Notes: generated by a model from the letters alone, not told the origin. A stretch of 64,000 bases of DNA from Candidatus Raymondbacteria bacterium RIFOXYA2_FULL_49_16 (GCA_001789205.1 MFYT01000054.1:1-64000), one strand, 5' to 3'. Counted from the first letter of the stretch, positions 27,477 through 42,321 are shown. Translations and numbers: made by a program.

Positions 27477-28712
27477 CTATTTGGCAATAGACAAGCCCGC
27501 GCAATACCCCGAGGCAAAGGCGCAGGTAAGGTTGAATCCGCCGCAGGGACCGTCAATATCGAGCACCTCGCCCGCAATATGGAGGCCCGGCGTCTTTTTG
27601 CTTGCAAAGGATTCAGGATCCACACCCGCCAATGCAACGCCGCCGCGAGCGACCATGGCGCCGTCAAACCCGGAAGTCCCGCATACCGTGAAAAAGCAGC
27701 CGGTTAACTGGGAGCAAAAAGTCCTTCGCGCCTGTGAGGTCAAATGGGCGGCGGTGGTTTCGGGTGTGCATCCTGCCTGCGAGCAGAGGAATTGCGCAAA
27801 GGAGCGGGGCATATGGTCCGCAAGAAGGTTTAGCACGGTTTTTCTGGGCAGCCGTTCGTACCATCCATCAAAGCGGTTAAGCCACATTTCCCTGGATGTT
27901 TCGGGAAAGAAGTCTATGGTAAGCAGCACTTTTCCCAGGCGTTCTATTGCCTCGGCAACGCTGCCGGAAATATCGAGTACCGCGGGTCCTGACAAGCCTT
28001 GGTGGGTGAAAAGAAGGGGGCCGGTTGCGGCAAATGCGCGGTATTTTGGCAGGTCTATGGCAACCCGTGCGTGTTCGAACGATGCGCCAGCGCATGATGC
28101 GACCCATGGTTCCTCTGTTTTCAGGGGCACAAGCGCTGGCAGCGGCGTCTTTATCGCATGACCAGCCTGGCGGCAGAGGGTGTATCCGCTCTCATTGCCC
28201 CCAAGATCGGGACGCGCCATACTGCCGGTTGCCACAACCACATTTTTAGCTTTAAAAAAAGTTGATCCAGATGCCACACCGGTTACAATGCCGGCTTCAA
28301 TGACCAGGGTGTCTATTTTTGTATGCGTCCGTATCTCAACCCCGGCCCGGGTACAGGCTGTCACCAGCGCGCCAAGTATGTCCGCGGCTTTTTCTGAAGC
28401 AGGATACACATGAAAGGTGTCGGGCGACATGTGTTCAACGCCGCATGATTTGAAAAACTCGATGATCGCCTCTGGTCCAAAGACGCCAAGCGCCTGGGCC
28501 ATGAACCGTCCCTGTCGTCCCAGCCTGGGCCAGAACTCATCGACCCCAAGCGTGTTGGTAAAGTTGCAGCGTCCTCCACCCGAGACAAGAATTTTTGCAC
28601 CGGGCCGCGCGTTTTGCTCAAAGACAATGGTTTTTTTGCCCGCCCGCGCCGCAATGAGCGCTGCCATGAGGCCAGCAGGCCCTGCACCGGCGACAATGCA
28701 GTCGTAGGTCAT
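27477..28712 (-). CDS. HI0933/YhiN-type FAD flavoprotein
   Basis: A 411-residue flavin-dependent oxidoreductase-like protein. It begins with the dinucleotide motif IVAGAGPAGLMAALIAARAG, and has SGGGRCNFTN, the ATGSMARPDLGGNESGY segment and the C-terminal LHIAGEVLDIDGPCGGFNL that defines the HI0933 family. The biochemical role of the family is not settled. ATG 28712 overlaps the glpK stop by 4 bases, so translation is coupled; the longer frame upstream lies inside glpK. Confidence 0.9.
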   Translation of the reverse strand: MTYDCIVAGAGPAGLMAALIAARAGKKTIVFEQNARPGAKILVSGGGRCNFTNTLGVDEFWPRLGRQGRFMAQALGVFGPEAIIEFFKSCGVEHMSPDTFHVYPASEKAADILGALVTACTRAGVEIRTHTKIDTLVIEAGIVTGVASGSTFFKAKNVVVATGSMARPDLGGNESGYTLCRQAGHAIKTPLPALVPLKTEEPWVASCAGASFEHARVAIDLPKYRAFAATGPLLFTHQGLSGPAVLDISGSVAEAIERLGKVLLTIDFFPETSREMWLNRFDGWYERLPRKTVLNLLADHMPRSFAQFLCSQAGCTPETTAAHLTSQARRTFCSQLTGCFFTVCGTSGFDGAMVARGGVALAGVDPESFASKKTPGLHIAGEVLDIDGPCGGFNLTCAFASGYCAGLSIAK

Positions 28713-30160
28713 ACCGTAACCGCCTGTCGCAGGGCCCTGCGCCACCCCGATACAAGCGCTGCGCGCGTCCTGTTCTTCATTGCGGGGACAAAAACACGGT
28801 CTATTGATTTGTGCGCAAAAAGGGCCTCGTGCGTTTTCCACACGCCCGCTTTGAGGCCAGCCAGGTATGCCGCGCCAAGTGAAGTTGATTCTATGACAGT
28901 GGGACGCACCACGGATTTTCCCAGGATGTCCGCCTGAAACTGCATGAGAAAATCGTTTGCGCTTGCCCCGCCATCAACAGCAAGGCTTTTGACCGCAATG
29001 GCGGTTTCGCGTTCCATGGCCTCCAGCACATCGAGGGTCTGGTATGCCATTGATTCGAGCGCCGCCCGTATAATGTGGTTTCTGTTTGCGCCGCGCGTTA
29101 ACCCGGCAAGAATTCCCCGGGCCTCCATGTTCCAGTGGGGCGCGCCCAGGCCCACAAAGGCGGGCACCAGATAGACGCCGTTGGTATTTTCCACCGCCCG
29201 CGCTGCGGCCTCACTTTCGGATGCCGTGTTCAGCAGCTTCAGTTCATCGCGCAGCCACTGGATGGCCGCGCCCGCGATAAATATTGATCCTTCGAGCGCG
29301 TAGCACGGATTTCCCTTGCCATTAACCGCCAGGGTAGTGATGAGGCCCTTTGTCGAGTGCACCGGCACGTCTCCGGTGTTCATAACAGCGAAGCAGCCAG
29401 TGCCATAGGTGTTTTTTATGCTTCCTTTTTCAAAGCACGTCTGGCCAAAGAGCGCCGCCTGCTGGTCGCCCGCGACACCAAAGACGGGCGCCCCGCGGAT
29501 CTGAGGCAGAGATTCAACGATACCGTAGTCATCGATGGATTTTTTAACCTGGGGCAACAGGGCGGGAAATATGTTCATGAGGTCGCACAGTTCCTGGTCC
29601 CACTTTTTAGCGTGGATGTTGAAAAGCATGGTACGCGACGCATTGGTGAAGTCCGTGGCATGCGTTTTTCCGCCTGTCAATTTCCAGACGAGCCAGGTGT
29701 CAATTGTCCCAAAAAGCAGGCCTTCTTGGTATCCGCCGATCGCGTCCAGGATCCACTGGATTTTTGTCCCTGAAAAATAGGCGTCAACCGGCAGGCCGGT
29801 CCTTTCCCTAATGAACGGTTCGTGCTGTTTCAGGCGCGCGCACTGGTCCGCGGTGCGCCTGCACTGCCAAACAATGGCGTTATGCACCGGTGTTCCGGTT
29901 TTTTTATCCCACATAACAGTGGTTTCACGCTGGTTGGTGATACCGAGGGCAGCGATGCGTTTGGCGCGTTCGGGCGTGCAGATTTCAGCGACAGTCTCTT
30001 GCACGGTTTTCCAGATTTCAAGCGGATCGTGTTCGACCCAGCCGGGTTTCGGGAAGATTTGCCTGAATTCACGATAGGCCTTTGCCACGGGCGCGCCGGA
30101 TTCTTCGTACAAGACAGTGGTGGTGCCGGTTGTTCCTTGGTCAATGGCGAGGACATACAT
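28709..30160 (-). CDS. glpK: Glycerol kinase
   Basis: Phosphorylates glycerol to sn-glycerol-3-phosphate. The 483-residue FGGY kinase has DQGTTGTTTVLYE at the N-terminus, TNQRETTVMWDKKTG, the KNTYGTGCFAVMNTG region and AVDGGASANDFLMQFQADIL near the end, all matching GlpK. ATG 30160 gives the usual start MYVLAIDQGTT. No glpF or glpD is nearby; it follows a GH42-like gene by 66 bases and is coupled to the flavoprotein gene downstream. Confidence 0.95.
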   Translation of the reverse strand: MYVLAIDQGTTGTTTVLYEESGAPVAKAYREFRQIFPKPGWVEHDPLEIWKTVQETVAEICTPERAKRIAALGITNQRETTVMWDKKTGTPVHNAIVWQCRRTADQCARLKQHEPFIRERTGLPVDAYFSGTKIQWILDAIGGYQEGLLFGTIDTWLVWKLTGGKTHATDFTNASRTMLFNIHAKKWDQELCDLMNIFPALLPQVKKSIDDYGIVESLPQIRGAPVFGVAGDQQAALFGQTCFEKGSIKNTYGTGCFAVMNTGDVPVHSTKGLITTLAVNGKGNPCYALEGSIFIAGAAIQWLRDELKLLNTASESEAAARAVENTNGVYLVPAFVGLGAPHWNMEARGILAGLTRGANRNHIIRAALESMAYQTLDVLEAMERETAIAVKSLAVDGGASANDFLMQFQADILGKSVVRPTVIESTSLGAAYLAGLKAGVWKTHEALFAHKSIDRVFVPAMKNRTRAALVSGWRRALRQAVTV

Positions 30161-30226
30161 GGTGAAAATATACTCAATATGGGCGGTGTCTCGATATGCT
30201 GCGCTACTCGACAACCGCCCTGGCGG

Positions 30227-32263
30227 CTATTCTTTGAGACCCACGGAAAGGCCTTCGACCGAGCGCGGGGGAAGAACGCAGGAGATCTGCAACTGTTTGC
30301 CGCAGCGCGCTATTTTGATCCGCGCTGAGTCAAACAACAGCGCCACCTTGCCCTGGGCCGGGACGCGCACTACCGCGGTCTGCCGGGTGCGGCCGTAATT
30401 AACCAGGCCTATGAGCATTCCCTTGCCAGTACTGATCACGCATTCTACATCCGGTCCCTTGGCAACAACCCTGTACGTGGAATCAAGGCGGAGGGAGATG
30501 GCCTTGTCAACAATCCCAGAGATTTTTTTATTGGATATAGCAAGGCCAAAGGGCGTTGCGCAGTAAAGCGTTGAGCAGGTAGCGGCGACAAGGGTGTCGC
30601 CCTGTTTGGTTTTTAAAAGCGGTTTGGCACCGAGCAGCGCTATGCGGCTGAACCGTTCCGCGTTTACCCCCGGGTCGTCATAAGGGGAGAAAAAGTCGGT
30701 CTCCTCATATCCGAAAAGGCCGGAAAGCCCCGCAGGTGGGCGCTCGCACGCGAAGCCGTTTTCATCGACCACTGCGAATCTGCCGTCGGCTATGACAAAG
30801 CCGCCGCGTTCAATAAACCGCCGCAGCGCGGCCGCGTGGGCCGCGGCAAGCATTGATTGGAATGGGACAATGAGCACACGGAGACGGGAAAAAGGTTCTG
30901 TGTGCAGATCGTCGGCCTGGAGCACTGATGGCGTGACGCCTTTTTGCCACAAGAAACGGTACCATCCGGCAAAGGAGGCGCGATAGAGCCCTTTTTCGTC
31001 CGGAAGGACCATGTCCGTGAAACGGTCGCACACGGGACTATACAGTATTCCAACGCCGTTGTCGATAATGCGGCGGCCCGTGAAAAGGCCCGGATGTTTT
31101 TCGAGCACGCGCGCCAGCGCGGAGGCCTGGGCGGCGCGTTCGTTGGGAGTTCCGTCGAGCGCGGTCATTCCCCTGCCGCCAACCTGGAAGCCGCGGATAA
31201 AGGGGTTCCATTTCCAGTATATGAGGCCTTCAATGCCGTGAACAAAGGCTTGCCATGTCCAGAGAAGGATTTCATCGAACACGGACGAATTACGCGCAAG
31301 AAGGGTCTGGTTGTGTGTCTGGAGCTCTGAGACCATGACCGGCTTGCCGCTGCTCAGGCTGCCCGCACACACGCCTGCGCGGTAGATCTGTGAAACCGTG
31401 CAAGGGTTTTCGCGCAGCCGCACGTCCCAGCTCTGTGGATAGACGCTCAAGCCAAAGACATCGACCGCGCGCGACACCTGCCAGTCATCGTTTCCCAGTT
31501 CCGTGGTGTCAAACGTTGTCATGGACCATTCATTATCTGCAATGACCAGGCGGCCGGGATCAGCTTCGTGCACCACCATTTTCCATCGTTCAACCAGCGA
31601 GATGATGGCGCTGGCCCGGAAATCCTCAAAATCGAGCTGGGGACGGAGCGACGTCCATTTGCTGTATGCGTAGGAAAAGGTCGCAGGGTCGATCTGGCTG
31701 AAATCAGTAAAAAACCTGCCCCAGATTGTATTCAACTTTTTGATTGAGCCGTATTTTTTCTTGAGCCATTCCCTGAAGGCGTTGACAGCAAGGGGATCGG
31801 CGGAGTGCAGATTGACCTCGTTAAAGAGGTCATAAGCCCAGAGGGCCGGATGGTCCTTGAAATGCTGGGCGACCGCGCGGACATAGCTGTCAATGGCGCC
31901 CGCCACCTGGGGGTGGAAGTAATTGAGCCAGTGGCGCGCCTTGGGGCTTGCCACACAGTGTTCAGTTCCAAAAGCATGGTCAGGTCCATATTGGAAGGCC
32001 GGGTTTTGGCCCTCGAGTTCGAGGATGACCCGCAGGTTGAGACGCGCGCATTCGTCCATGACGCGATCAACGGAATCAAAAGCGATGGAAACACCGTCAG
32101 CGCTGTCCCACCTGCTTATGGGCGGCCAGAGTACCACGGTGTTGAGCCCGGCCTTGGCCATGGCTTCAAGGTCCTTTTTTCTGCGCTCAAAGGGGAGGGC
32201 TTCTTCTATGAGGTAGACCGCGCCCAACAGGGGCTTGTCGAGATGGGGTAGGTGTGTGCGCAT
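30227..32263 (-). CDS. GH42-like beta-galactosidase family protein
   Basis: A 678-residue protein with an N-terminal TIM barrel (about 10-390), a central GATase1-like domain (about 415-560; VLIVPFQSMLAAAHAAALRRF) and a small C-terminal beta domain, the GH42 layout. Candidate catalytic residues are Glu in YDLFNEVN (acid/base) and Glu in VMVSELQTH (nucleophile). There is no signal peptide, so it probably acts on imported oligosaccharides in the cytoplasm. Similarity to GH42 is by architecture; GH5/GH39-like specificity cannot be excluded. It is 6 bases after the CBM48 gene, in the same operon. Confidence 0.75.
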   Translation of the reverse strand: MRTHLPHLDKPLLGAVYLIEEALPFERRKKDLEAMAKAGLNTVVLWPPISRWDSADGVSIAFDSVDRVMDECARLNLRVILELEGQNPAFQYGPDHAFGTEHCVASPKARHWLNYFHPQVAGAIDSYVRAVAQHFKDHPALWAYDLFNEVNLHSADPLAVNAFREWLKKKYGSIKKLNTIWGRFFTDFSQIDPATFSYAYSKWTSLRPQLDFEDFRASAIISLVERWKMVVHEADPGRLVIADNEWSMTTFDTTELGNDDWQVSRAVDVFGLSVYPQSWDVRLRENPCTVSQIYRAGVCAGSLSSGKPVMVSELQTHNQTLLARNSSVFDEILLWTWQAFVHGIEGLIYWKWNPFIRGFQVGGRGMTALDGTPNERAAQASALARVLEKHPGLFTGRRIIDNGVGILYSPVCDRFTDMVLPDEKGLYRASFAGWYRFLWQKGVTPSVLQADDLHTEPFSRLRVLIVPFQSMLAAAHAAALRRFIERGGFVIADGRFAVVDENGFACERPPAGLSGLFGYEETDFFSPYDDPGVNAERFSRIALLGAKPLLKTKQGDTLVAATCSTLYCATPFGLAISNKKISGIVDKAISLRLDSTYRVVAKGPDVECVISTGKGMLIGLVNYGRTRQTAVVRVPAQGKVALLFDSARIKIARCGKQLQISCVLPPRSVEGLSVGLKE

Positions 32264-32269
32264 GCGGGA

Positions 32270-32575
32270 TCAGGCGTCTATGACCGAATTATCGCAATTT
32301 GAAAATGACGAATAGGCGTAGGCGTCCGCGTCTTCCTCATTGTACCAGTTGCCGTGAGCCACATATTTGAACTGGTATTCCTTGTTGATAGGGAGATCTA
32401 TGGTAAGCGTAAATGTTCCATCCTTTCCTTTTTTCATGATATGAGCAGTCTGGTTCCATCCATTGAAATCGCCCGCCACCGCGACAGAGGGTGCGTTTGC
32501 CACAGTGTGGGGCAAGAGGAAAAACGTCACCCTGCATACTGGCTTGTCTTTAAGGTATTCCTTCTTCATGCTCAT
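32270..32575 (-). CDS. Solitary CBM48 (glycogen-binding-type) protein, copy 1
   Basis: A 101-residue protein consisting only of an isoamylase-N/AMPK-beta-type CBM48 domain: SVAVAGDFNGWNQTAHIMKK, then GTFTLTIDLP, YQFKYVAHGNWYNEEDADAYAYSSF. The WN pair and the aromatic residues that stack on alpha-glucans are present. It has no enzyme domain or signal. A paralogue lies at 41374-41682. It is the first gene behind a strong promoter (32638-32666) with AGGAGG before the ATG, and leads into the GH42-like gene. A sugar-sensing or scaffold role is inference. Confidence 0.85.
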   Translation of the reverse strand: MSMKKEYLKDKPVCRVTFFLLPHTVANAPSVAVAGDFNGWNQTAHIMKKGKDGTFTLTIDLPINKEYQFKYVAHGNWYNEEDADAYAYSSFSNCDNSVIDA

Positions 32576-32637
32576 ATCAGCCTCCTGATGGTTTTATGCC
32601 CGCGTATTTCCACTGATCCCTTGCCCCCCTTTATATT

Positions 32638-32666
32638 AAATTATATTAATCAATGGGTTATGTCAA
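32638..32666 (-). promoter_or_regulatory. Promoter of CBM48-GH42 operon
   Basis: On the minus strand a perfect TTGACA (32661-32666) is followed by TAATTT with 17-base spacing (32638-32643), or an exact TATAAT with 15-base spacing (32640-32645), about 63 bases upstream of the CBM48 start. The surrounding 166-base gap (32576-32741) holds nothing else obvious. Confidence 0.65.
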
Positions 32667-32741
32667 TAGTTTTACCAACAGCTTTAAGCCTTCGCTGCCT
32701 CACGAAACAATATTTTTTGCTGCCACGAAAGCTCTTTCTTT

Positions 32742-35700
32742 TTATTTCAGGACAAGTGTTTTGATTTCAAAGGGGGTAAACGAGAGCTTGCATGAATGGT
32801 TGCGTACTGCCACGTTTGTTTCAGGCTGCTCGAGCATGTTTGCCTCGGCGGCTGTTGCAAGCGGCAGGTCCCACGAGAGGACGGTTGTTGCGTGGGCGCC
32901 CATGGTTTCATAGAGGCGCACCACAATGGCGTCCGTGTCCTCAGCCTTTTTCACGGTTTCAATTTTCACGGTGCCTTGTGTCAAGGCGAACGAACGGCGC
33001 AGAGGCGTTGCCGGCGGCCGCGCAACAGGATGGACAATTGCGGGCGTATTGAGTTCGTGCGCCTTGTGCAGCACGTCCGAATGGGTCAGGTCACCCGTGT
33101 GCGGATAGTAGGCATAGGTGAATTCATGCACGCCAATATCGGCGGTCTCGTCCGGGTTCACGGGGCTGCGCAGCAGGGAAAGCTCAATAGCGTTGCCGGG
33201 ACAGCAGTGGCCGAACTTGGAATCGTTCAAGAGGGCGAGCCCAAAATCAGTACTTGATAAATCAGCAAACCTGTGGGCGCACACCTCAAAACGCGCCTGG
33301 TCCCACGAGGTGTTCTGGTGGGTGGGCCTGCGCACCACGCCGTATTGCACCTCGTAGCTTGCCTCGAGCGGCTGGAGCGCGGCCGCGGCGTGCACTTTGA
33401 GCAGCTTGTGACGTTCGTTCCAGGTAACACGGTTTTTGATTGTCACAAGCTTTGATTTTTCGCACAGGGAAATCTCCTGCTCTATGACAGACGCGCCCAC
33501 AGTCAGTTTTTGGCGCACGGTGACACGCAGGGGTGTTTTTTCGACGATGCTCCGCGATACCAGCGTTGCCTGGACCGGTTTGGTTTCCTTGTAGTAGTGG
33601 CTCACGTCCCAGGCGTCCCATTCATAGGGGATGTCTTCCCAAAGGAGCAGGTGGTTCGCCGCTCCCTGGAGCATTTCCCGTTTAAGCTCCTTGTCGAACA
33701 AAGAGACAATTGTCCCGTTGGCACCAAGGCGTACGCGTACCAGACTGTTTTCGAGCAGCGATTCTCTGACAGTGAGGGTGCTGATGATTGGTTCGGGCGG
33801 CGTGCGTACCAGGTGGACCGCCGCGTATCCCATGGAGGGGAGCGTGACGCGTACCTGCAGGGAATTGCCTTTTTTTATGCAGGGCAGCAGCATGCCGTCA
33901 GGCCCGGAAGCAGACCAGGGGCCGTTATCCGGGAGGGGCAGGGTGAGGGTGGCTGCGCGCTGCCAGGAGAGGGTGTTCCATACCGCAAAGAAATGCGCGC
34001 GCGCGGCAGGCGCACCGTGGAGCGCGCGCAAAGCGCGACCAGTAATCTCATTGAGCTCGTTGTGGCATTCCTCGTATAGCGCGTGGGCGTCCTTGTAGAC
34101 CCAGGCAATGGATGAACCAGGGATAATGTCGTGGAACTGGTTGAGCAGCACTTTTTTCCACGTTTTTTCAAGCTGTGCTTTTGGGTATTTGGCGGGCGCG
34201 ATCGCACAAAAAAACTCGGCGTTTCTGAGTTTGTGTTCGAGCGCGCGGTTCTGCTTTTTTACCAGGGCTTGTGTTGTATACGTGCCGCGATGGAGTTCGA
34301 GATAGAGCTCGCCTTTCCAGACGGGAAGTTTTTTTTCCGGAATGGCGGCCATTGTCTTGAAAAAGTCCTTTGCAAAGGAAAAAGTGAAGCGCGGCACGCC
34401 CTCGCTATTTTTCTGGCAAAGGCCGAATTCGATGTGTTTGCGCGAGGGGCCGCCGCCGCCGTCGCCAACGCCGTAGAGTTGGAGAAAGGCGCTGGTAATG
34501 TCGGCCTGGCTGAAGCGGTCCTGGGCCGCCATGAGCTCTTGCGGCTTGTTGGTGGCGTTGTAGCCGTGGGCAGGAAGGAAATGAGTCAAAATACCCGTGC
34601 CATCGATGCCAATCCAGTTAAAGGTATAATGGGGGAAAGGATTGCTCTCGTTCCACGAGATTTTTTGGGTCATAAAATAGTTGACCCCGCATTTTTTCAG
34701 GATCTGCGGCAGGGCCGCTGAATAGCCGAAGACATCGGGAAGCCAGAGGTTATCCACAACAACGCCGAACTCCTGTTTGAAGAACCGTTTGCCATAGAGG
34801 CACTGGCGCACCAGGGATTCGCCGCCTGTGATGTTGGTATCGGCCTCAACCCACATGACACCCTGGCATTCAAGCCGCTTTTTCGCCACAGCCTGTTTCA
34901 CGCGTGCGTAGAGCGTTGGGTACTGCTCTTTCATCCACTGGAAAAGTTGCGGCTGCGATGCGCCGAATTTGTACTGCGGGTATTCGTCCATGAGTTTGAG
35001 CGCAGTGGAAAAGGTGCGGCCGCCCTTGCGGATGGTTTCGCGTATTGGCCAGAGCCAGCCAAGGTCGAGGTGCGCATGACCAATGCCATATGCCGTGAGC
35101 GCGCTTGAGGCGGCGGGTATGGCGAGCAACTTTTTCGTTATCGCAAGACACGCATCAACGCCCTTGCCTTCGGCATAGGCATTGGCCGCCTCGTTGAGGC
35201 CAAAGAGGAGGCGTTTTCTGCGTACCGACTGTTCAGGCAACCCGAGCATGAGATCTTCGAGCACGGTAAGATCGATATCAAGAGCCCATGCCTTGCGGTC
35301 CACCACGGCAAGGGAACACAGATTGAGCCGGTACACCACCTCCCGCTGATTGCCAAAAAGCCCTGTTCCAGCGGCCTCGACCAAAAGGGACACACGCTCG
35401 CTGCCGCGCGCTTTTTTAAACAGGGGATACAAGCGTTTTTGCGCGTTTTTTAGCGGCCATCCATATTCAAACTTGCCTGTAAGGCCCATGTCGGGTGCCC
35501 CATTTTTCCATACGCACGCTTCGCCGCCCGTATCGATAAGCGCCGCGATCTCTTTACCCGTCCACGCCTTGGGCACCTGTCCCTTGAACGTGAACCAGGC
35601 AGAGGCCCATTTGGGTCCCCATTTCGAGCCTATTGCTATGGGATGGAACCGGGTCTTGAGCGCCTGCGCGTAGGGAATGGGATTTTTTTTGTCGACCACG

Positions 35701-35798
35701 ATTGCCGCACTCATGATCTGAGTGGCCGGATAGCGGCTGTTGTACACTGTTTCCCTGAACTGATGAATGCGGCGTTCATAAATGGCGCGGCTCTGCAT
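32742..35798 (-). CDS. GH38 alpha-mannosidase
   Basis: A 1018-residue class II alpha-mannosidase. The N-terminal part is a ~230-residue beta domain; the catalytic domain begins with YGIGHAHLDLGWLWPIRET (zinc His and Asp), and has the nucleophile Asp in WVEADTNITGGESLVRQ (about residue 318) and HDIIPGSSIAWVYKDA (zinc His) further on; a long C-terminal beta sandwich completes it. It should release mannose from alpha-mannosides such as N-glycan fragments, probably in the cytoplasm since no signal is seen. rbsK lies 17 bases upstream. The isomerase at 39590 could use the mannose. Confidence 0.93.
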   Translation of the reverse strand: MQSRAIYERRIHQFRETVYNSRYPATQIMSAAIVVDKKNPIPYAQALKTRFHPIAIGSKWGPKWASAWFTFKGQVPKAWTGKEIAALIDTGGEACVWKNGAPDMGLTGKFEYGWPLKNAQKRLYPLFKKARGSERVSLLVEAAGTGLFGNQREVVYRLNLCSLAVVDRKAWALDIDLTVLEDLMLGLPEQSVRRKRLLFGLNEAANAYAEGKGVDACLAITKKLLAIPAASSALTAYGIGHAHLDLGWLWPIRETIRKGGRTFSTALKLMDEYPQYKFGASQPQLFQWMKEQYPTLYARVKQAVAKKRLECQGVMWVEADTNITGGESLVRQCLYGKRFFKQEFGVVVDNLWLPDVFGYSAALPQILKKCGVNYFMTQKISWNESNPFPHYTFNWIGIDGTGILTHFLPAHGYNATNKPQELMAAQDRFSQADITSAFLQLYGVGDGGGGPSRKHIEFGLCQKNSEGVPRFTFSFAKDFFKTMAAIPEKKLPVWKGELYLELHRGTYTTQALVKKQNRALEHKLRNAEFFCAIAPAKYPKAQLEKTWKKVLLNQFHDIIPGSSIAWVYKDAHALYEECHNELNEITGRALRALHGAPAARAHFFAVWNTLSWQRAATLTLPLPDNGPWSASGPDGMLLPCIKKGNSLQVRVTLPSMGYAAVHLVRTPPEPIISTLTVRESLLENSLVRVRLGANGTIVSLFDKELKREMLQGAANHLLLWEDIPYEWDAWDVSHYYKETKPVQATLVSRSIVEKTPLRVTVRQKLTVGASVIEQEISLCEKSKLVTIKNRVTWNERHKLLKVHAAAALQPLEASYEVQYGVVRRPTHQNTSWDQARFEVCAHRFADLSSTDFGLALLNDSKFGHCCPGNAIELSLLRSPVNPDETADIGVHEFTYAYYPHTGDLTHSDVLHKAHELNTPAIVHPVARPPATPLRRSFALTQGTVKIETVKKAEDTDAIVVRLYETMGAHATTVLSWDLPLATAAEANMLEQPETNVAVRNHSCKLSFTPFEIKTLVLK

Positions 35799-35815
35799 GG
35801 GAGGTCCTTTGTTAG

Positions 35816-36691
35816 CTATGGTCTGATTTCACGATTCCAGGGTATGGAGGCAGCGGCGCCTTTACGCGTTACGCACACGGCAGCTGCTGCGCAGGCAATC
35901 TCAAGGCAGGTACGCGTGTCTTTGCCCGCCATTTTTTGCGCCAGGAAATATCCGATGAAGGTATCGCCCGCCGCAGTGGTGTCAATGGCTTTCACGTTTG
36001 GGGCGGCAACAGCAATACGCGTTTTTTCATGGCCATACATGGCACCCTTGGCGCCGAGGGTAAGCACTGTCTCGGCCTTTGGAAATTTTTTTCCCAATGC
36101 GTCGAGGATATGATCCGGTTTTTTTTCTCCTGTCAATTCAGCGCCTTCAATCTCGTTTACAATAAAGCAGGAGACGTGACGCAGGGGCAAAGAGAGCACG
36201 TTTTTATTCATGGGAGCTGGATTAAAGACAACGTAGAGGCCGCGGCGGGCGCCAAGCGCAATGGCGTCGGCCACGGCGCTGGTTTCGTTCTGCACCAGCA
36301 GATAGTCGCGGGCCGAGAATCCGGGAAGAACGCGGCGTATATCGGCGCGCGTGATGTGCTGGTTGGCACCGCCAAAAAGGACAATGGCGTTTTCCCCTGT
36401 TTTGGCCACCTGGATTATCGCGTGGCCGCTTGGTCCGTCAACTACCTCGACATGCCGTGCGTTTACCCCTGATGTGCGCAGGAGCTTTATGAACCAAGCG
36501 CCGTCTTCCCCGATTTTTCCCGCGTGGTACACGGCCGCGCCCGCGCGCCCCAGGGCAATGGACTGGTTTGCGCCCTTGCCGCCGGGAAAGAGCGCGTATC
36601 CTGTGCTGGCCATAGTTTCGCCAGGCCTGACAAAATGGTCAACAGCGTAGACATGGTCTATGTTCAAGGAGCCGAAATTGAGGATTTTCAT
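35816..36691 (-). CDS. rbsK: Ribokinase (PfkB family)
   Basis: A 291-residue carbohydrate kinase. The N-terminus NFGSLNIDHVYAVDHFVRPGET and FPGGKGANQSIALGRAG are the ribokinase signature with the sugar-binding Asp, and the C-terminal DTTAAGDTFIGYFL carries the catalytic Asp and anion hole. It matches RbsK rather than fructokinase in these segments, but the mannose setting means another sugar is possible. It lies 17 bases before the mannosidase; three tandem hairpin units occupy the gap upstream. Confidence 0.85.
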   Translation of the reverse strand: MKILNFGSLNIDHVYAVDHFVRPGETMASTGYALFPGGKGANQSIALGRAGAAVYHAGKIGEDGAWFIKLLRTSGVNARHVEVVDGPSGHAIIQVAKTGENAIVLFGGANQHITRADIRRVLPGFSARDYLLVQNETSAVADAIALGARRGLYVVFNPAPMNKNVLSLPLRHVSCFIVNEIEGAELTGEKKPDHILDALGKKFPKAETVLTLGAKGAMYGHEKTRIAVAAPNVKAIDTTAAGDTFIGYFLAQKMAGKDTRTCLEIACAAAAVCVTRKGAAASIPWNREIRP

Positions 36692-36734
36692 TGGGTAGAG
36701 AAAATAATTAATGGAAGGGATAAAATAATAGCAG

Positions 36735-36909
36735 GGGCGTCATTCCGCGCACGAGGTCATATATTGCCGAATGACGCCCGTACAATGCGGGGGATTGAGG
36801 GGCGTCATTCTACGCACGAGGTCATATATTGCTGAATGACGCCCGTACAATGCGGGGGATTGAGGGGCGTCATTCTACGCACGAGGTCATATATTGCTGA
36901 ATGACGCCC
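36735..36909. repeat. Three tandem 65-bp units, each with an 11-bp inverted repeat
   Basis: GGGCGTCATTC occurs at 36735-36745, 36800-36810 and 36865-36875, and its exact complement GAATGACGCCC at 36769-36779, 36834-36844 and 36899-36909, so the period is exactly 65 bases. Units 2 and 3 are nearly identical; unit 1 differs at a few bases in the loop. Each would fold into an 11-bp stem with a 23-base loop. They fill the 235-base gap between the PfkB gene at 36927 and the ribokinase gene. Confidence 0.95.
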
Positions 36910-36926
36910 ATACAATCCCGGGCCTG

Positions 36927-38123
36927 TCATTGTGCGCAATACAAATCGTAGTATTTTTTCACACGCGCGTATTTTTCTCCCGGCGTCTTTTCCAGATAGG
37001 TGCCGCCCATATAATAGCAGGCGAATCCGCCAGAGGCAATACCCCAGGCAATGGCGTCCGCGAGATCGAGGTGTCCCGCATCGCGTTCGCGCATCTGCAT
37101 GGCTATTGACGCGAGAACGCCTCCGGCGAAATTATCGCCGCAGCCAGTGGTGTCTCCCTTGAGGCCGGGATTGGCCGCAAGTTCGTCAACAACCGCTTGT
37201 GAAACAGGGAGCGAAAACAACCCAGTTTTTTTAAAGGCCCGGCCCTCTGAATAAGCCTGGACAGGGCGCGATCCATTGGTTACTACCAGGCTGGCAAGGC
37301 CCGCATTTCTGAAAAAGGCCATTGCATCGTCAATGGTGCGCTTGTTACTTAAACGCAGCGCCTCCTCGTGGTCTGTTATAAGCAGGTCAGTGTTTTGGTA
37401 GGTCTCGTCGCTTTTTCCCAACGGCCATTTTGCGCAGGGGTCTTTTTTTTCGTTCCTGAAATCGTACACGGTTGAGACAATAGTGAAACACCCCTTGTCA
37501 TGCGCGCGCCCGGTAAGTTCCGTGAGCCCGTCGTGCAGGTTGGGCACCAGGCCTGTTGCGCCAAAAAGAACAATGGGGGAATTAAAAAACGCTTCGGGCA
37601 GGTCGGACGGATGCAGGTCCCAGGCCGCGCCGATGTTGTTCACAAAAGTGCGCTCGCCATGACCGTGGTCGTACGCAGGGTCGGAAAAGACACAAGTGTA
37701 GGGAGTGGTGGAAAAGGTAATTGCGTAGCGGGAACAATCCAACGGTGTTGCGGCCACGATTTCACCTAGACGTTTTCCCACCCAGTCGTTTCCCCGTACT
37801 CCGTAGAAAGAAACCCCTGCCTGCTGCTGAGATAAAAGCTGGGCTGCGCTAATAAGCGCCACAATGGCAGGGCCGCCCAGGTTCAGGGTATCGGGATCGC
37901 GTGTTCCCACGATCTCAGCTCGCACCTGGTCAAACGATTTTCCAGAGAAACTTTCAAATTCCTCGACAAAGACTAGTTTTCCTGGTGAAAGGCCGCCGTC
38001 GCCCTGGGTTTTTGAGAGGTATTTTTGAAATACAGGGCTGGTGAAATCAACCCTGTTGTACACAAAATCTGCCACTGCGCAGCCAACCCCGGCAATGGCA
38101 ATTTGACCGCCTGTTCCGCCCAT
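36927..38123 (-). CDS. PfkB-family carbohydrate kinase
   Basis: A 398-residue PfkB kinase, longer than ribokinase because of an N-terminal insert (about 20-65). It has GVGCAVADFVYNR, the LGGPAIVALISAAQLL segment, and the C-terminal GDTTGCGDNFAGGV catalytic motif with Asp. The substrate is unknown; in this operon, fructose formed from mannose by the isomerase two genes upstream would make sense. The ATG directly abuts the sulfatase stop, so translation is coupled. Confidence 0.82.
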   Translation of the reverse strand: MGGTGGQIAIAGVGCAVADFVYNRVDFTSPVFQKYLSKTQGDGGLSPGKLVFVEEFESFSGKSFDQVRAEIVGTRDPDTLNLGGPAIVALISAAQLLSQQQAGVSFYGVRGNDWVGKRLGEIVAATPLDCSRYAITFSTTPYTCVFSDPAYDHGHGERTFVNNIGAAWDLHPSDLPEAFFNSPIVLFGATGLVPNLHDGLTELTGRAHDKGCFTIVSTVYDFRNEKKDPCAKWPLGKSDETYQNTDLLITDHEEALRLSNKRTIDDAMAFFRNAGLASLVVTNGSRPVQAYSEGRAFKKTGLFSLPVSQAVVDELAANPGLKGDTTGCGDNFAGGVLASIAMQMRERDAGHLDLADAIAWGIASGGFACYYMGGTYLEKTPGEKYARVKKYYDLYCAQ

Positions 38124-39575
38124 TTACCGTGGTTCCAGGCCTGCTTCCCGCAGCACGGCCTGGGGTTTTCTGCCAACCACCAGCTTCCCCGCCTTTACAT
38201 ATCCTTCTTCGCGGCCCTTGAGTTCAGCCACAAGGCAGGTCCTGAGATATTTTACGCGGTTGGGCCATTTATGAGAAAGGTCGTTCATGTTTACCGGGTC
38301 TTTTTCAAGGTCAAAATACTGTTCCCTGCCGGTCTGGGAATACCAGATGAACATTTCTTTGCCATTGGTTATCCAGTGGTTCGATAACTTGCCCCTTGCG
38401 TGCTCGCCGTGGACGTATTCTCGCCAAGGGCCATCCTTTTTACCGGTGCAGAGAGGGATCAGGTTCCGTCCTTCAACCGCCGCTGGCACGGGCACGCCAG
38501 CGGCCGCAAGCAGCGTTGGCATAATGTCCCTGAGTTCCACGGGCGCGTCAACCGTGTGCGTTGTGGGCCCTGCCCAGTGTTCGGGAAACTTCATGAGGCA
38601 CGGCACGCGCGCCGATGCCGCATAGCCCAGCCCTTTGGCTGTAAAGCCGTGATCGAACAGCATGTCGCCGTGATCGCTCATAAAAAGGATGAGCGAGTTG
38701 TCGAGTTGGCCGTGTTCGTCAAGGGATTGCACCAGCCGAATTATCTGATTATCAATAAATGAGAGGTTGGCATAGTATGCCCTGCGCGCGCGGTCGATCT
38801 GGTCACCGCTGCGGTTGAAGAAATATCGCGGGCTGTCGTACCCCGAGCTGGTGCGGGTTTCGCCTGTTGCCCAGTCGCCCACGGGCGTTTCGGGAAGCGC
38901 GCGGTCGCAATAGAGATCGTACCAGCGCTTTGGCGGATCGAGCGGCGGATGGGGCCGGTGATACGAAACTTTGAGGAAGAAGGGTCTTTCGGTGTCGCGC
39001 CGTCTTAAAAAATCAATGGCCTGCGTGGTGACCCAGGCGGTGGGATGGTCAAGGTCGTTATAGGGCCAGGGGTTTACGGTATAGCCGTTGCAGCCCAGGC
39101 CCGAATCGACGTAGTCGGCCCGGGGACCATATTTTTCCCTGAGCCAGATCCGGTAGTCGTCGCTCAAATCATAGTCTTTTTCGCCGCACCGTTCAGTGTG
39201 CAAATAGCCGTCGTGCAATACCACGTTATGAAAGCCCATGAGCGAGCGCGCGGGAAAGACGTGCATTTTTCCCACGCACTGGGTGTGGTAGCCTGCCTTT
39301 GCCAGTTCACCCGCAAGCGTGGTCTGGTAGGTCCATGGCACGCGGTCCTGATACCCGACTCTGCCGTGGCTGCGCTGAGAAAGTCCTGTCATAAGCGCGG
39401 CGCGCGCTGCAATGCACGAGGGCACAGCGGAATACGCCTGTGTAAAGGCGACACCATGCTGGAAAAGATAGTCAATATTAGGCGTTTCGACCACCGGATG
39501 GCCATGGGATCCAATGCAGTCGCCGCGCCACTGGTCCGCGACAATAAGCACAATGTTCGGCCTTGTTTTTTCCAT
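38124..39575 (-). CDS. Type I sulfatase
   Basis: A 483-residue alkaline-phosphatase-superfamily sulfatase that hydrolyses sulfate esters after a cysteine is converted to formylglycine. It has the metal site PNIVLIVADQWRGD, the modification motif at C54 in SCIAARAALMTG (C-x-A-x-R, the variant also accepted by anaerobic maturases), and the late MSDHGDMLFDHG with metal Asp/His. No signal peptide is evident, so it would work on imported sugars. No maturase (anSME) is in the window. It lies 14 bases downstream of the isomerase gene. Confidence 0.92.
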   Translation of the reverse strand: MEKTRPNIVLIVADQWRGDCIGSHGHPVVETPNIDYLFQHGVAFTQAYSAVPSCIAARAALMTGLSQRSHGRVGYQDRVPWTYQTTLAGELAKAGYHTQCVGKMHVFPARSLMGFHNVVLHDGYLHTERCGEKDYDLSDDYRIWLREKYGPRADYVDSGLGCNGYTVNPWPYNDLDHPTAWVTTQAIDFLRRRDTERPFFLKVSYHRPHPPLDPPKRWYDLYCDRALPETPVGDWATGETRTSSGYDSPRYFFNRSGDQIDRARRAYYANLSFIDNQIIRLVQSLDEHGQLDNSLILFMSDHGDMLFDHGFTAKGLGYAASARVPCLMKFPEHWAGPTTHTVDAPVELRDIMPTLLAAAGVPVPAAVEGRNLIPLCTGKKDGPWREYVHGEHARGKLSNHWITNGKEMFIWYSQTGREQYFDLEKDPVNMNDLSHKWPNRVKYLRTCLVAELKGREEGYVKAGKLVVGRKPQAVLREAGLEPR

Positions 39576-39589
39576 ACTGAACCTCCACG

Positions 39590-40267
39590 TTACTTCAGGA
39601 ATTGTGCGTAATCAGCGGCCAGCAGGTGCAGGGGCGCGCAATCCTCTTCAATATCCGGAAAACGGCTAACGGGTTTGTAGAACCGGTTGTCCTTTGCATC
39701 GTCGTTAACCGTGCTTACTTCGCCCACCAGCACCCGACCCCTGTCTTTTTGCCCATAGAAACGGTGATACAGGCCCTGAGTAAGACAGATGCTTTCACCC
39801 GGCGTAAGAACCACTTTTCCACCCGCTGGAATGGTGCGTGTAATGCCGTCTATTGAAACTGTGACCGGTTTTTTTGAGAACCGTTCGTCGCTCGTGGCGT
39901 TATACAGCTCTATGACCAGGTTGCCGCCACCGCGGTTTATGATGTCTTCCATTTTATGCCGGTGAAAATGCATGGGCGTTTCCTGCATTTCATCCACAAC
40001 CATAATTTTCTCAGCATAGGGCTTCTTGCCCTTTTTCGTGTTCCCATTGCGCATGGTAAACAGAAGAAGGCCTTTTCGCCCAAAGTCTTTGCCGCCAAAA
40101 TCGGTCATATCCCAGCCGAGCATGGCGTCGATGATTTCATGGCAATGGTCCTTTGCTTTTTTCCAGTCGCTCAGAGACCAGAAGGCCCAGGGAGGAAGGG
40201 AGACGCGCATGCGCCTGAAAAAGGCCTTGGCGGCTTGAAGGCGGTTGTTGATTTCAGAGCGTTTCAT
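39590..40267 (-). CDS. D-lyxose/D-mannose isomerase (cupin)
   Basis: A 225-residue cupin of the D-lyxose ketol-isomerase family (former DUF1498), which interconverts D-lyxose and D-xylulose and, usually, D-mannose and D-fructose with Mn2+. The metal ligands are visible as His, His and Glu in TPMHFHRHKMEDII and a later His in QGLYHRFYG. The N-terminal SEINNRLQAAKAFF helix is typical. Context with an alpha-mannosidase and PfkB kinases favours a mannose-to-fructose role. It is 18 bases after the DUF3332 gene. Confidence 0.9.
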   Translation of the reverse strand: MKRSEINNRLQAAKAFFRRMRVSLPPWAFWSLSDWKKAKDHCHEIIDAMLGWDMTDFGGKDFGRKGLLLFTMRNGNTKKGKKPYAEKIMVVDEMQETPMHFHRHKMEDIINRGGGNLVIELYNATSDERFSKKPVTVSIDGITRTIPAGGKVVLTPGESICLTQGLYHRFYGQKDRGRVLVGEVSTVNDDAKDNRFYKPVSRFPDIEEDCAPLHLLAADYAQFLK

Positions 40268-40285
40268 GCGCTGTTTTTGCGGCGT

Positions 40286-40819
40286 TTATTTAGCCATGCA
40301 CCCGATTGCACCAGTTTCGGTATTGTATACAAAGGAGCTGCCGTCGGGATTGAATATCTCAAGGACATTGTCTTCGCGAACCTCGGCGACCTTGATAGAA
40401 CCGGTTTTGTCTTGCGCATACCACGACTCCTCAGCGGCATTATAGACCAGGCTGACGGTCTGGCCAGTCCGCGGGCCCGAGAGAAGCGATATGTCCATCC
40501 GGTTTTGAGAAGCGGCGATTTTATAAGTCTCGGTGTCTTTTACCACGATCGTTTCCTGGTGTTCGAATTCGCCCATGGTAATAGGGTTTGACCCGGTCCA
40601 GAATTCAATAGTATTGAAGATAAAAAAGTCGACCGCCCCGACGGCCGCGTACACGGGGACAATCATCATGATCCACATGACCGCACTATTAGCGGCCCGA
40701 CCTCCCAGCGATCCGTTCCATTGGTACAGTTCTTTTGTAAGCTGGAATTTACCATAGCACCCGGAAAACAGGAACAATGCGAGAGATACCAGGACCAGGG
40801 CTGATTTAACGCGTTTCAT
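40286..40819 (-). CDS. DUF3332-type lipoprotein
   Basis: A 177-residue predicted lipoprotein: the signal peptide ends LFLFSGCYGKF, with Cys as the lipidation site. CYGKFQLTKELYQWNGSLG, a transmembrane-like AVMWIMMIVPVYAAVGAVDF and NTIEFWTGSNPI match DUF3332, a family of unknown function; the second half is a beta-rich soluble part. ATG 40819 has GAGGAAG upstream. It is odd to see this envelope protein inside a sugar operon; no role is known to me. Confidence 0.85.
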   Translation of the reverse strand: MKRVKSALVLVSLALFLFSGCYGKFQLTKELYQWNGSLGGRAANSAVMWIMMIVPVYAAVGAVDFFIFNTIEFWTGSNPITMGEFEHQETIVVKDTETYKIAASQNRMDISLLSGPRTGQTVSLVYNAAEESWYAQDKTGSIKVAEVREDNVLEIFNPDGSSFVYNTETGAIGCMAK

Positions 40820-40866
40820 GGAGACTTCCTCTTTTAAAGGATTAATGCCCGGAGAGCGGGAACGAA

Positions 40867-41334
40867 TCACCCGGCCGCGGCCCAGGCTATCTTTAGCACG
40901 ACTTTTTTTATTTTTTCTGATTGTGTTTCCGCGAAAAGCTGGGGTGTGTGCGCGTCATCAGGATAAAACGCGGCAAAGAGGCCGGGCTTCATGACCATTT
41001 CAGAGAGCGGGACCACGGCTGTGTCGTAGAATTCCGCGTCTTTTGATTCGTCATAGGGGGTTTTTATGACACACACTTTTTTTGGCACCCAGGCGAGCTT
41101 TTCCTTCCCGGAAATGGTTATATGCACATCAATATATTTACGGTGGGTCTCGAGAATGGCCTTGTCACGGCCGTGCGTGCCGTAGCTTACCACAATGGCA
41201 TAAAGGTCGTTTTCCCGAAGGAAGTATTTTTTTTCTTCGGAGGAAACAGAGAGGCCGCGGACAAAGGCGAGGGCTTCGTCCCAAACAGAGCCTTTAAAAT
41301 AAAGACCCCAGGCGTCCAATGAGTCGAGGATCAT
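40867..41334 (-). CDS. YhcH/YjgK/YiaL family protein
   Basis: A 155-residue DUF386 cupin-like protein. It has ETHRKYIDVHITISGKEKL, a typical metal-binding His/Glu stretch, PLSEMVMKPGLFAAFYPDDAHTPQL and a terminal KVVLKI, matching YhcH/EbgC. Family members are linked to sialic acid or other sugar catabolism and EbgC is the small subunit of a beta-galactosidase. Here it is the second gene of the mannose/sulfatase operon, consistent with sugar anomer or isomer handling, which is inference. Confidence 0.9.
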   Translation of the reverse strand: MILDSLDAWGLYFKGSVWDEALAFVRGLSVSSEEKKYFLRENDLYAIVVSYGTHGRDKAILETHRKYIDVHITISGKEKLAWVPKKVCVIKTPYDESKDAEFYDTAVVPLSEMVMKPGLFAAFYPDDAHTPQLFAETQSEKIKKVVLKIAWAAAG

Positions 41335-41373
41335 GGATGCGGTGCTATCCGAATTATGGTATGGACCGGTGTA

Positions 41374-41682
41374 TTAGACCGTGACGACGCAGTTGTCCGT
41401 GTGCGCGAACGACGAGAAGGCGTACGCGTCAGCGGCGGGATCGTTGAGCCAGCGGCCTCCATCGAGCAGGTATCTGAACTGGTAGTTGCGGCCCTTTTGC
41501 AGGTTAAGGGACACATAGTACCCGCCGCGAGGCAGCTTTTTCATGGCCGTGGTCTTGGGATTCCATTCATTGAAATCGCCGACAAGCGCCACTGATTTCA
41601 CGCTTTCGGTCAGCTCCTTGGGAAGCGTAAAGGTCACCTTTACCTGAGGTTTGCCTTTGATGGGTTCTTTCTTGAGACTCAT
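41374..41682 (-). CDS. Solitary CBM48 (glycogen-binding-type) protein, copy 2
   Basis: A 102-residue paralogue of the protein at 32270-32575, again a lone CBM48: SVALVGDFNEWNPKTTAMKK, GGYYVSLNLQKGRNYQFRYLLDGGRW and DAYAFSSFAHTDN. The two proteins share N-terminal MS-KKE and C-terminal DAYA-SSF signatures, so they arose by duplication. It is the first gene of the YhcH-isomerase-sulfatase operon, with AAGGAGG before the ATG and a promoter 40-70 bases upstream. Nothing suggests catalysis. Confidence 0.85.
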   Translation of the reverse strand: MSLKKEPIKGKPQVKVTFTLPKELTESVKSVALVGDFNEWNPKTTAMKKLPRGGYYVSLNLQKGRNYQFRYLLDGGRWLNDPAADAYAFSSFAHTDNCVVTV

Positions 41683-41721
41683 GGATCCTCCTTAAAAATT
41701 TTCTTTCCCGGACAGACAATA

Positions 41722-41750
41722 ATATAATGTTTGGCAATATGAGAATTCAA
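41722..41750 (-). promoter_or_regulatory. Promoter of CBM48-YhcH-sulfatase operon
   Basis: On the minus strand TTGAAT (41745-41750) and TTATAT (41722-41727) are 17 bases apart, 39 bases upstream of the CBM48 start. The rest of the gap to 41994 is AT-rich and I see nothing else in it. Confidence 0.5.
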
Positions 41751-41994
41751 TAGCCTATTTTAATTAGATTAAGTAAAACTTGGGGTGGGCTTAAACAAAG
41801 CATCGTCAGCATAACGCTTTGATTATTAAGTTGTTATATTCATTTAACATAAAAGAAAATGTTGCTCCAGAGGATTTAATATTTTTAATCTTTCTAGTTG
41901 GAAGGGCGCGCGAGGGCTAAAGAGTAGTGTGACTGGTGTGAAGGTATTTTGTATTTTTACAGAGTACAGACACATGAATATGGAGGACTATAGA

Positions 41995-42321
41995 ATGCTC
42001 GATAAAAAAGAAGCCATTAAACGATACAAACAGACCATTCAGCCCATGGGCATTTTTCGGGTCAAGAACCTGGCAAACGGAAAGGTATTCATTGACAGCA
42101 GTAAAAACCTCAACAGCTCATTGAACAGCAACCAGTTTCAGCTTAAACTAGGTGCGCACAGGAACAGGCCCCCTCAGGAGGATTATAACAGTTTTGGCGA
42201 GGACCAGTTTGTTTTTGAGATATTGGACCAGCTAAAACCAAAGGACGATGACCCAGCGTACGATTACACCGAGGATCTTGAAGTGCTGAAATCAATATGG
42301 CTGGAAAAAATTGGGCTATGA
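41995..42321 (+). CDS. Degenerate GIY-YIG family protein
   Basis: A 108-residue protein resembling the small GIY-YIG group common in Firmicutes: MGIFRVKNLANGKVFIDSSKNL, then KLGAHRNRPPQEDYNSFGEDQFVFEIL. The GIY is GIF and the YIG is FID, so the catalytic tyrosines are altered; nuclease activity is doubtful. ATG 41995 is chosen because GGAGG lies at 41982-41986; upstream ATGs at 41974 and 41980 are in frame. It is AT-richer than its neighbours and stands alone, which hints at transfer. Confidence 0.75.
   Translation: MLDKKEAIKRYKQTIQPMGIFRVKNLANGKVFIDSSKNLNSSLNSNQFQLKLGAHRNRPPQEDYNSFGEDQFVFEILDQLKPKDDDPAYDYTEDLEVLKSIWLEKIGL

What the first reader, a model, noticed from the sequence alone, without database searches (positions are those of the whole stretch)
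32270..41750. Two lone CBM48 proteins each lead a sugar operon
The paralogues (101 and 102 residues) contain nothing but the AMPK-beta/isoamylase-type domain, and each is the first gene behind a good promoter with a strong ribosome site. CBM48 is normally attached to glycogen enzymes or a kinase. A free domain at the head of catabolic operons suggests a regulator or adaptor that reports alpha-glucan/glycogen status, or tethers enzymes to glycogen granules.
Basis: partly seen in the sequence, partly recalled or inferred. Interest (0 to 1): 0.6.

Follow-up and report, generated by a model that had tools for sequence, protein, structure and literature searches.

The report
Two free-standing glycogen-binding-type proteins
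The window carries two small proteins that consist only of the sugar-polymer-binding domain found in glycogen enzymes; they belong to a widespread, unstudied bacterial family that probably binds glycogen, but heading a sugar operon is peculiar to this genome and gives no support for a regulator.

Summary
CBM48-A (32270-32575, minus, 101 aa) and CBM48-B (41374-41682, minus, 102 aa) are lone CBM48 domains, 43% identical, each with AGGAGG before its ATG, each followed closely by sugar-catabolism genes. B clearly starts a gene run. A probably does, but it lies 166 bp behind a same-strand gene with no terminator seen. Lone CBM48 is not unusual: this ~100-residue family occurs in 116/249 genomes of one Chloroflexota class, 36/145 of a Desulfobacterota class, 18/198 of a Spirochaetota class and 13/247 of a Bacteroidota class, and RefSeq already names such proteins 'isoamylase early set domain-containing protein'. 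In the window's phylum only this genome has it. Positions equivalent to AMPK-beta W100, K126 and W133 are kept in 98-100% of 138 members (N150 in 88%), and both models have the AMPK/GlgB CBM48 fold. Of 120 neighbourhoods, 25 hold a glycogen enzyme within 10 kb (about 4-7% expected by rough estimate), but 77 genes stand alone and at most 22 head an operon. None shares the window's mannoside/sulfatase context. Best reading: cytosolic, non-catalytic alpha-glucan-binding proteins associated with glycogen; partner and exact role unknown. The regulator/adaptor reading is possible but unsupported.

The parts
41374..41682 (-). CBM48-B, lone CBM48 protein, 102 aa, no signal peptide apparent from its sequence
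32270..32575 (-). CBM48-A, lone CBM48 protein, 101 aa, no signal peptide apparent from its sequence
41721..41750 (-). promoter-like site before CBM48-B, TTGAAT-18-TATATT (9 of 12; 3 sites found in the region, 1.1 expected)
32640..32666 (-). promoter-like site before CBM48-A, exact TTGACA-15-TATAAT
   Evidence: 0.05 expected in the window; not matched by the 16-18 nt spacer scan
40867..41334 (-). YhcH/YjgK/YiaL (DUF386) protein, 39 bp after CBM48-B
40286..40870 (-). DUF3332 protein
39590..40267 (-). D-lyxose/D-mannose isomerase
38124..39575 (-). arylsulfatase
36927..38123 (-). PfkB-family sugar kinase
35816..36691 (-). ribokinase-like PfkB kinase (235-bp gap before it)
32742..35798 (-). GH38 alpha-mannosidase
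30227..32263 (-). GH42-family glycosidase, 6 bp after CBM48-A
28709..30214 (-). glycerol kinase-like protein (GlpK), 12 bp after the GH42-family gene
   Evidence: read from the translation; gap; not run against a family library

Best explanation
The two genes encode cytosolic, non-catalytic, single-domain alpha-1,4-glucan-binding proteins of a pan-bacterial CBM48 family. Binding is expected at the same surface as in AMPK-beta: W40, K70 (A) or R70 (B), W77 (A) or W78 (B), and N96 (A) or N97 (B), numbered as. The protein most likely sits on the cell's glycogen particle and acts as an accessory there (shielding it, nucleating it, or docking an enzyme). In this genome it is made together with enzymes that take in hexoses from mannosides and sulfated glycans, so that particle protein and carbon influx would rise together. 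Shown here: domain, fold, conserved contact residues, family distribution, enrichment beside glycogen genes in other phyla, glycogen genes in this genome. Inferred: glycogen binding itself, location on the particle, the accessory role and the reason for the operon position.
For: Pfam CBM_48 hits with no other domain. Across 138 family members the positions equivalent to AMPK-beta1 W100, K126, W133 and N150 are W 100%, R or K 100%, W 98% and N 88% (residue correspondence from the profile alignment). Those positions, N150 apart, are shown to matter for glycogen binding in AMPK (PMC2642990), and the two tryptophans in PTST (PMC4339375). Both models superpose on glucan-binding CBM48s: A best on AMPK beta1 GBD 1z0m, B best on E. 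coli GlgB with malto-octaose 8sdb. 25 of 120 neighbourhoods have a glycogen enzyme within 10 kb and 18 within 1 kb; 4-7% and 1-1.5% expected on rough assumptions. The arrangements differ between phyla: divergent from GlgP with GlgC/GlgA downstream and ahead of amylo-alpha-1,6-glucosidase in Chloroflexota, beside GlgA/GlgB in Desulfobacterota, GlgX in Spirochaetota, GlgB or GT3 glycogen synthase in Bacteroidota. Own genome: GlgP 825 aa, GlgA-like 605 aa and GlgB-like 679 aa.
Against: 95 of 120 relatives have no glycogen gene within reach, and the window has none. No GlgC model match in this genome, and the GlgA and GlgB hits are below NCBIfam's curated cut-offs. Some CBM48 domains do not bind starch (CE1-linked group; PMC8040265). 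No binding was measured. Part of the query set for the enrichment came from neighbours seen in the same family, the chance rate is a calculation and not an empirical control (the control regions could not be fetched), and lineages share ancestry, so the 120 are not independent.
Confidence: 0.55

Rival explanations
1. Glycogen-status adaptor or regulator: the free domain binds glycogen or maltodextrin and, by contact with a partner protein, tunes the enzymes or expression of the operon it leads.
For: First-gene position of B and probable first-gene position of A; AMPK-beta offers a precedent for a CBM48 as a sensing module (PMC2642990); first-gene position seen in up to 22 of 120 relatives, some ahead of glycogen debranching or branching enzyme genes.
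Against: No DNA-binding, kinase or interaction domain in either protein; operon-head position not conserved (77 of 120 stand alone); no relative shares the mannoside/sulfatase context; the family spreads across phyla without a constant partner gene.
Confidence: 0.12
2. Re-tuned binding module: the two copies bind another intracellular glycan, for example a mannoside or sulfated oligosaccharide handled by the operon, and present it to the enzymes.
For: Operon content is GH38, sulfatase, mannose/lyxose isomerase, not alpha-glucan enzymes; CBM48 domains without starch binding are known (PMC8040265); both copies differ from the family consensus at some positions.
Against: The alpha-glucan contact residues are kept in both copies, unlike what re-tuning would predict; models match glucan-binding CBM48s best.
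Confidence: 0.15
3. Incidental position: an ordinary, usually solitary gene of the family landed twice in this gene cluster; co-expression with the operon has no functional meaning.
For: The gene is usually solitary; only this genome in its phylum has it, which suggests acquisition; upstream regions of A and B are unrelated, and copy number and neighbours vary freely elsewhere.
Against: Two copies in one 9.4-kb stretch, both at the front of a run, where at most 18% of relatives are heads; the short 6-bp and 39-bp junctions look like real operons.
Confidence: 0.2

Closest known systems
RefSeq 'isoamylase early set domain-containing protein' (free CBM48, ~90-105 aa)
   Same: Same length and domain; the related Streptomyces plasmid proteins found with CBM48-B carry this name; the window proteins share the family motif KKxYLKxKPxCKVTF...GDFNxW...W.ND.EAD.Y...ENSVV with members in at least six phyla.
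   Different: Two copies in one gene cluster beside mannoside/sulfatase genes; no other member found in the window's phylum.
AMPK-beta glycogen-binding domain (PF16561, rat beta1 GBD)
   Same: Fold (1z0m, TM 0.66/0.81) and the W, K/R, W, N contact positions.
   Different: No kinase-binding C-terminal part; A passes the Pfam cut-off of this family, B does not.
PTST / FLO6 plant starch-targeting proteins
   Same: Non-catalytic proteins whose CBM48 binds alpha-glucan through two tryptophans (PMC4339375).
   Different: PTST has a coiled coil that recruits granule-bound starch synthase; the window proteins have no such part.
CBM48 of GlgB branching enzymes
   Same: Fold (8sdb best match for B) and weak profile hits.
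   Different: No catalytic domain follows; the genome's own GlgB-like enzyme is a separate gene with its own CBM48.

Membership tests
CBM48 (PF02922) | Match above Pfam's gathering score | tested here: met
   36.9 and 24.5 bits against 22.4
CBM48 (PF02922) | CBM48 fold (immunoglobulin-like beta-sandwich) | tested here: met
   AlphaFold2 models; Foldseek to AMPK-beta and GlgB CBM48
CBM48 (PF02922) | Binds alpha-glucan | not testable with these tools
   Contact residues conserved; no binding data, and some CBM48s do not bind starch
Free-standing CBM48 family (RefSeq isoamylase early set domain-containing protein) | About 100 residues with no other domain | tested here: met
Free-standing CBM48 family (RefSeq isoamylase early set domain-containing protein) | Family motif CxVTF ... 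GDFNxW ... F[RK]Y ... W.N..AD.Y ... N | tested here: met
   Met throughout in A; B lacks the cysteine (V14, as 15% of members) and has the rest
AMPK-beta subunit | GBD followed by alpha/gamma-binding sequence (AMPKBI) | tested here: not met
   Proteins end with the CBM48 domain
Operon regulator or adaptor | Operon-head position conserved in relatives | tested here: not met
   77 solo, 22 head, 10 tail, 4 internal, 7 at contig edge of 120
Operon regulator or adaptor | Direct contact with operon enzymes or transcription machinery | not testable with these tools
   needs pull-down

The most novel reading that the evidence does not exclude
A bacterial AMPK-beta-like or PTST-like system: free CBM48 proteins sit on the glycogen particle and, through a docking surface in the conserved N-terminal KKxYLKxKPxCKVTF segment, recruit or restrain metabolic enzymes, so that a sugar operon's output is tied to stored glycogen.
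Probability: 0.1. Interest if true: 0.75.

Novelty: new member of a known kind. Interest (0 to 1): 0.38.

Why it matters
The family is present in close to half of sampled genomes of one Chloroflexota class and in many other phyla, keeps an intact glucan-binding surface, and often lies next to glycogen genes, yet no experimental study of it turned up in eight literature searches, and a 2021 review says glycogen-associated proteins of prokaryotes are essentially unstudied (PMC8116748). It offers small, easily purified candidates for glycogen-particle proteins in bacteria. For the window itself the importance is modest.

Tried and rejected
Recent duplication of a promoter-plus-gene cassette: coding DNA is 61% identical and the upstream regions do not align above shuffles. 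Separate origins of A and B: the free tree puts them in different groups, but a tree that holds them together is slightly better and is not rejected (AU p 0.57), so paralogy stands as possible. Operon-head position as a family trait: rejected. Shared neighbours with the window operons: none beyond generic kinases, a sulfatase and distant GlpK or BaiN hits. Two family scans failed on wrong coordinates and were repeated (then 83). Annotated Vibrio regions held no gene table.

Full report
What is there. CBM48-A (32270-32575) and CBM48-B (41374-41682) are real, complete minus-strand genes. Each passes Pfam's CBM_48 cut-off and holds nothing else; they are 43% identical. The genome has one further CBM48, inside a GlgB-like enzyme of 679 aa. 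AGGAGG precedes both start codons.

Operon position. B lies 39 bp before a YhcH-type gene; DUF3332, D-lyxose/mannose isomerase, sulfatase and a PfkB kinase follow at -4 to 18 bp, then, after 235 bp, a ribokinase-like kinase and a GH38 mannosidase. A lies 166 bp behind GH38, on the same strand, and 6 bp before a GH42-family gene followed by a glycerol kinase-like gene. An exact TTGACA-15-TATAAT stands before A, but the short spacer and the missing terminator leave open that A is also read from upstream. Neither operon has an alpha-glucan enzyme, and no glycogen gene lies in the window.

The family. It is not. With a 27-member profile, matches at E <= 1e-20 occur in 116 of 249 genomes of the class of an Anaerolineaceae genome, 36 of 145 of the class of Desulfogranum, 18 of 198 of a Spirochaetales genome's class and 13 of 247 of Larkinella's class. 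RefSeq names related proteins 'isoamylase early set domain-containing protein'. In the window's own phylum (168 genomes) only this genome scores above 100 bits; the next best is 69. That pattern suggests acquisition from outside the phylum, which is an inference.

Binding surface. In AMPK-beta, W100, K126, W133, L146 and T148 are reported to contact glucan, and their mutation markedly reduces glycogen binding (PMC2642990); mutating the two matching tryptophans of PTST abolishes starch binding (PMC4339375). In 138 members of the free family the positions matching W100, K126 and W133 are W 100%, R 91% or K 9%, and W 98%; the position matching N150 is N 88% (correspondence by the profile alignment to 1z0n; N150 as a contact is from memory). 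Both window proteins keep all four. The models are confident and closest to the AMPK-beta1 glycogen-binding domain (A) and to branching enzymes, among them E. coli GlgB with malto-octaose (B). A warning: CBM48 domains attached to CE1 esterases do not bind starch (PMC8040265), so the fold alone proves nothing.

Neighbourhoods. I fetched 120 regions around family members. A glycogen enzyme lies within about 10 kb in 25 and within 1 kb in 18. Under an assumed 9 to 15 glycogen loci per 4.3-Mb genome, 4-7% and 1-1.5% would be expected. The arrangements are of different kinds in different phyla: divergent from GlgP with GlgC and GlgA behind, or directly ahead of an amylo-alpha-1,6-glucosidase (GDE_C), in Chloroflexota; GlgA and GlgB in Desulfobacterota; GlgX in Spirochaetota; GlgB, or GT3 glycogen synthase with GH57, in Bacteroidota. 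Limits: some queries were taken from these neighbourhoods, relatives share ancestry, and the empirical control could not be fetched. 95 of 120 have no glycogen gene in reach.

Operon-head test. With crude gene calls, 77 members stand alone, 22 head a run, 10 end one, 4 are inside and 7 lie at a contig edge. Several of the 22 are followed by doubtful ORFs, so 22 is an upper limit. No relative has the window's operon genes around it apart from generic kinases and a sulfatase.

Own-genome glycogen capacity. GlgP is clear (825 aa, 1199 bits). GlgA-like and GlgB-like genes are present below curated cut-offs. GlgC was not found by TIGR02091 at E 1e-10. A glycogen store is plausible, not shown.

Conclusion. 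The two proteins are most likely cytosolic glycogen-binding accessory proteins of a widespread but uncharacterised family. What is special here is two copies fronting mannoside/sulfated-glycan operons in a phylum that otherwise lacks the family. That may mean co-production with carbon influx, or nothing. The regulator idea is not excluded but rests on position alone.

Noticed in passing
L012, L013, L014, L015, L018; L123-L127 (other genomes of the window's phylum, family f3): CBM48 proteins with a 56-80 residue Lys/Ala/Pro/Thr-rich, histone-H1-like N-terminal tail, several overlapping or adjoining a diaminopimelate-decarboxylase-like gene.
   Followed up: partly
L121:9038-9661, L122:2757-3371, L128 region; probably also L091, L095, L098, L099, L103, L111: CBM48 at the C-terminus of zinc-finger anti-sigma-like proteins directly behind an ECF sigma factor gene: a glucan-binding-type domain apparently wired to sigma regulation.
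   Followed up: no
L045:5528-6117, L046:5998-6659: Tandem pairs of free CBM48 genes divergent from a glycogen phosphorylase gene in Anaerolineae.
   Followed up: partly
L265 and three other Chloroflexota regions: In a few Chloroflexota the free CBM48 gene is near KDPG-aldolase-like and PfkB sugar-kinase genes.
   Followed up: no
window 41929-42321 (+): Small ORF divergent from CBM48-B, GIY-YIG-nuclease-like by eye; not run against a library.
   Followed up: no
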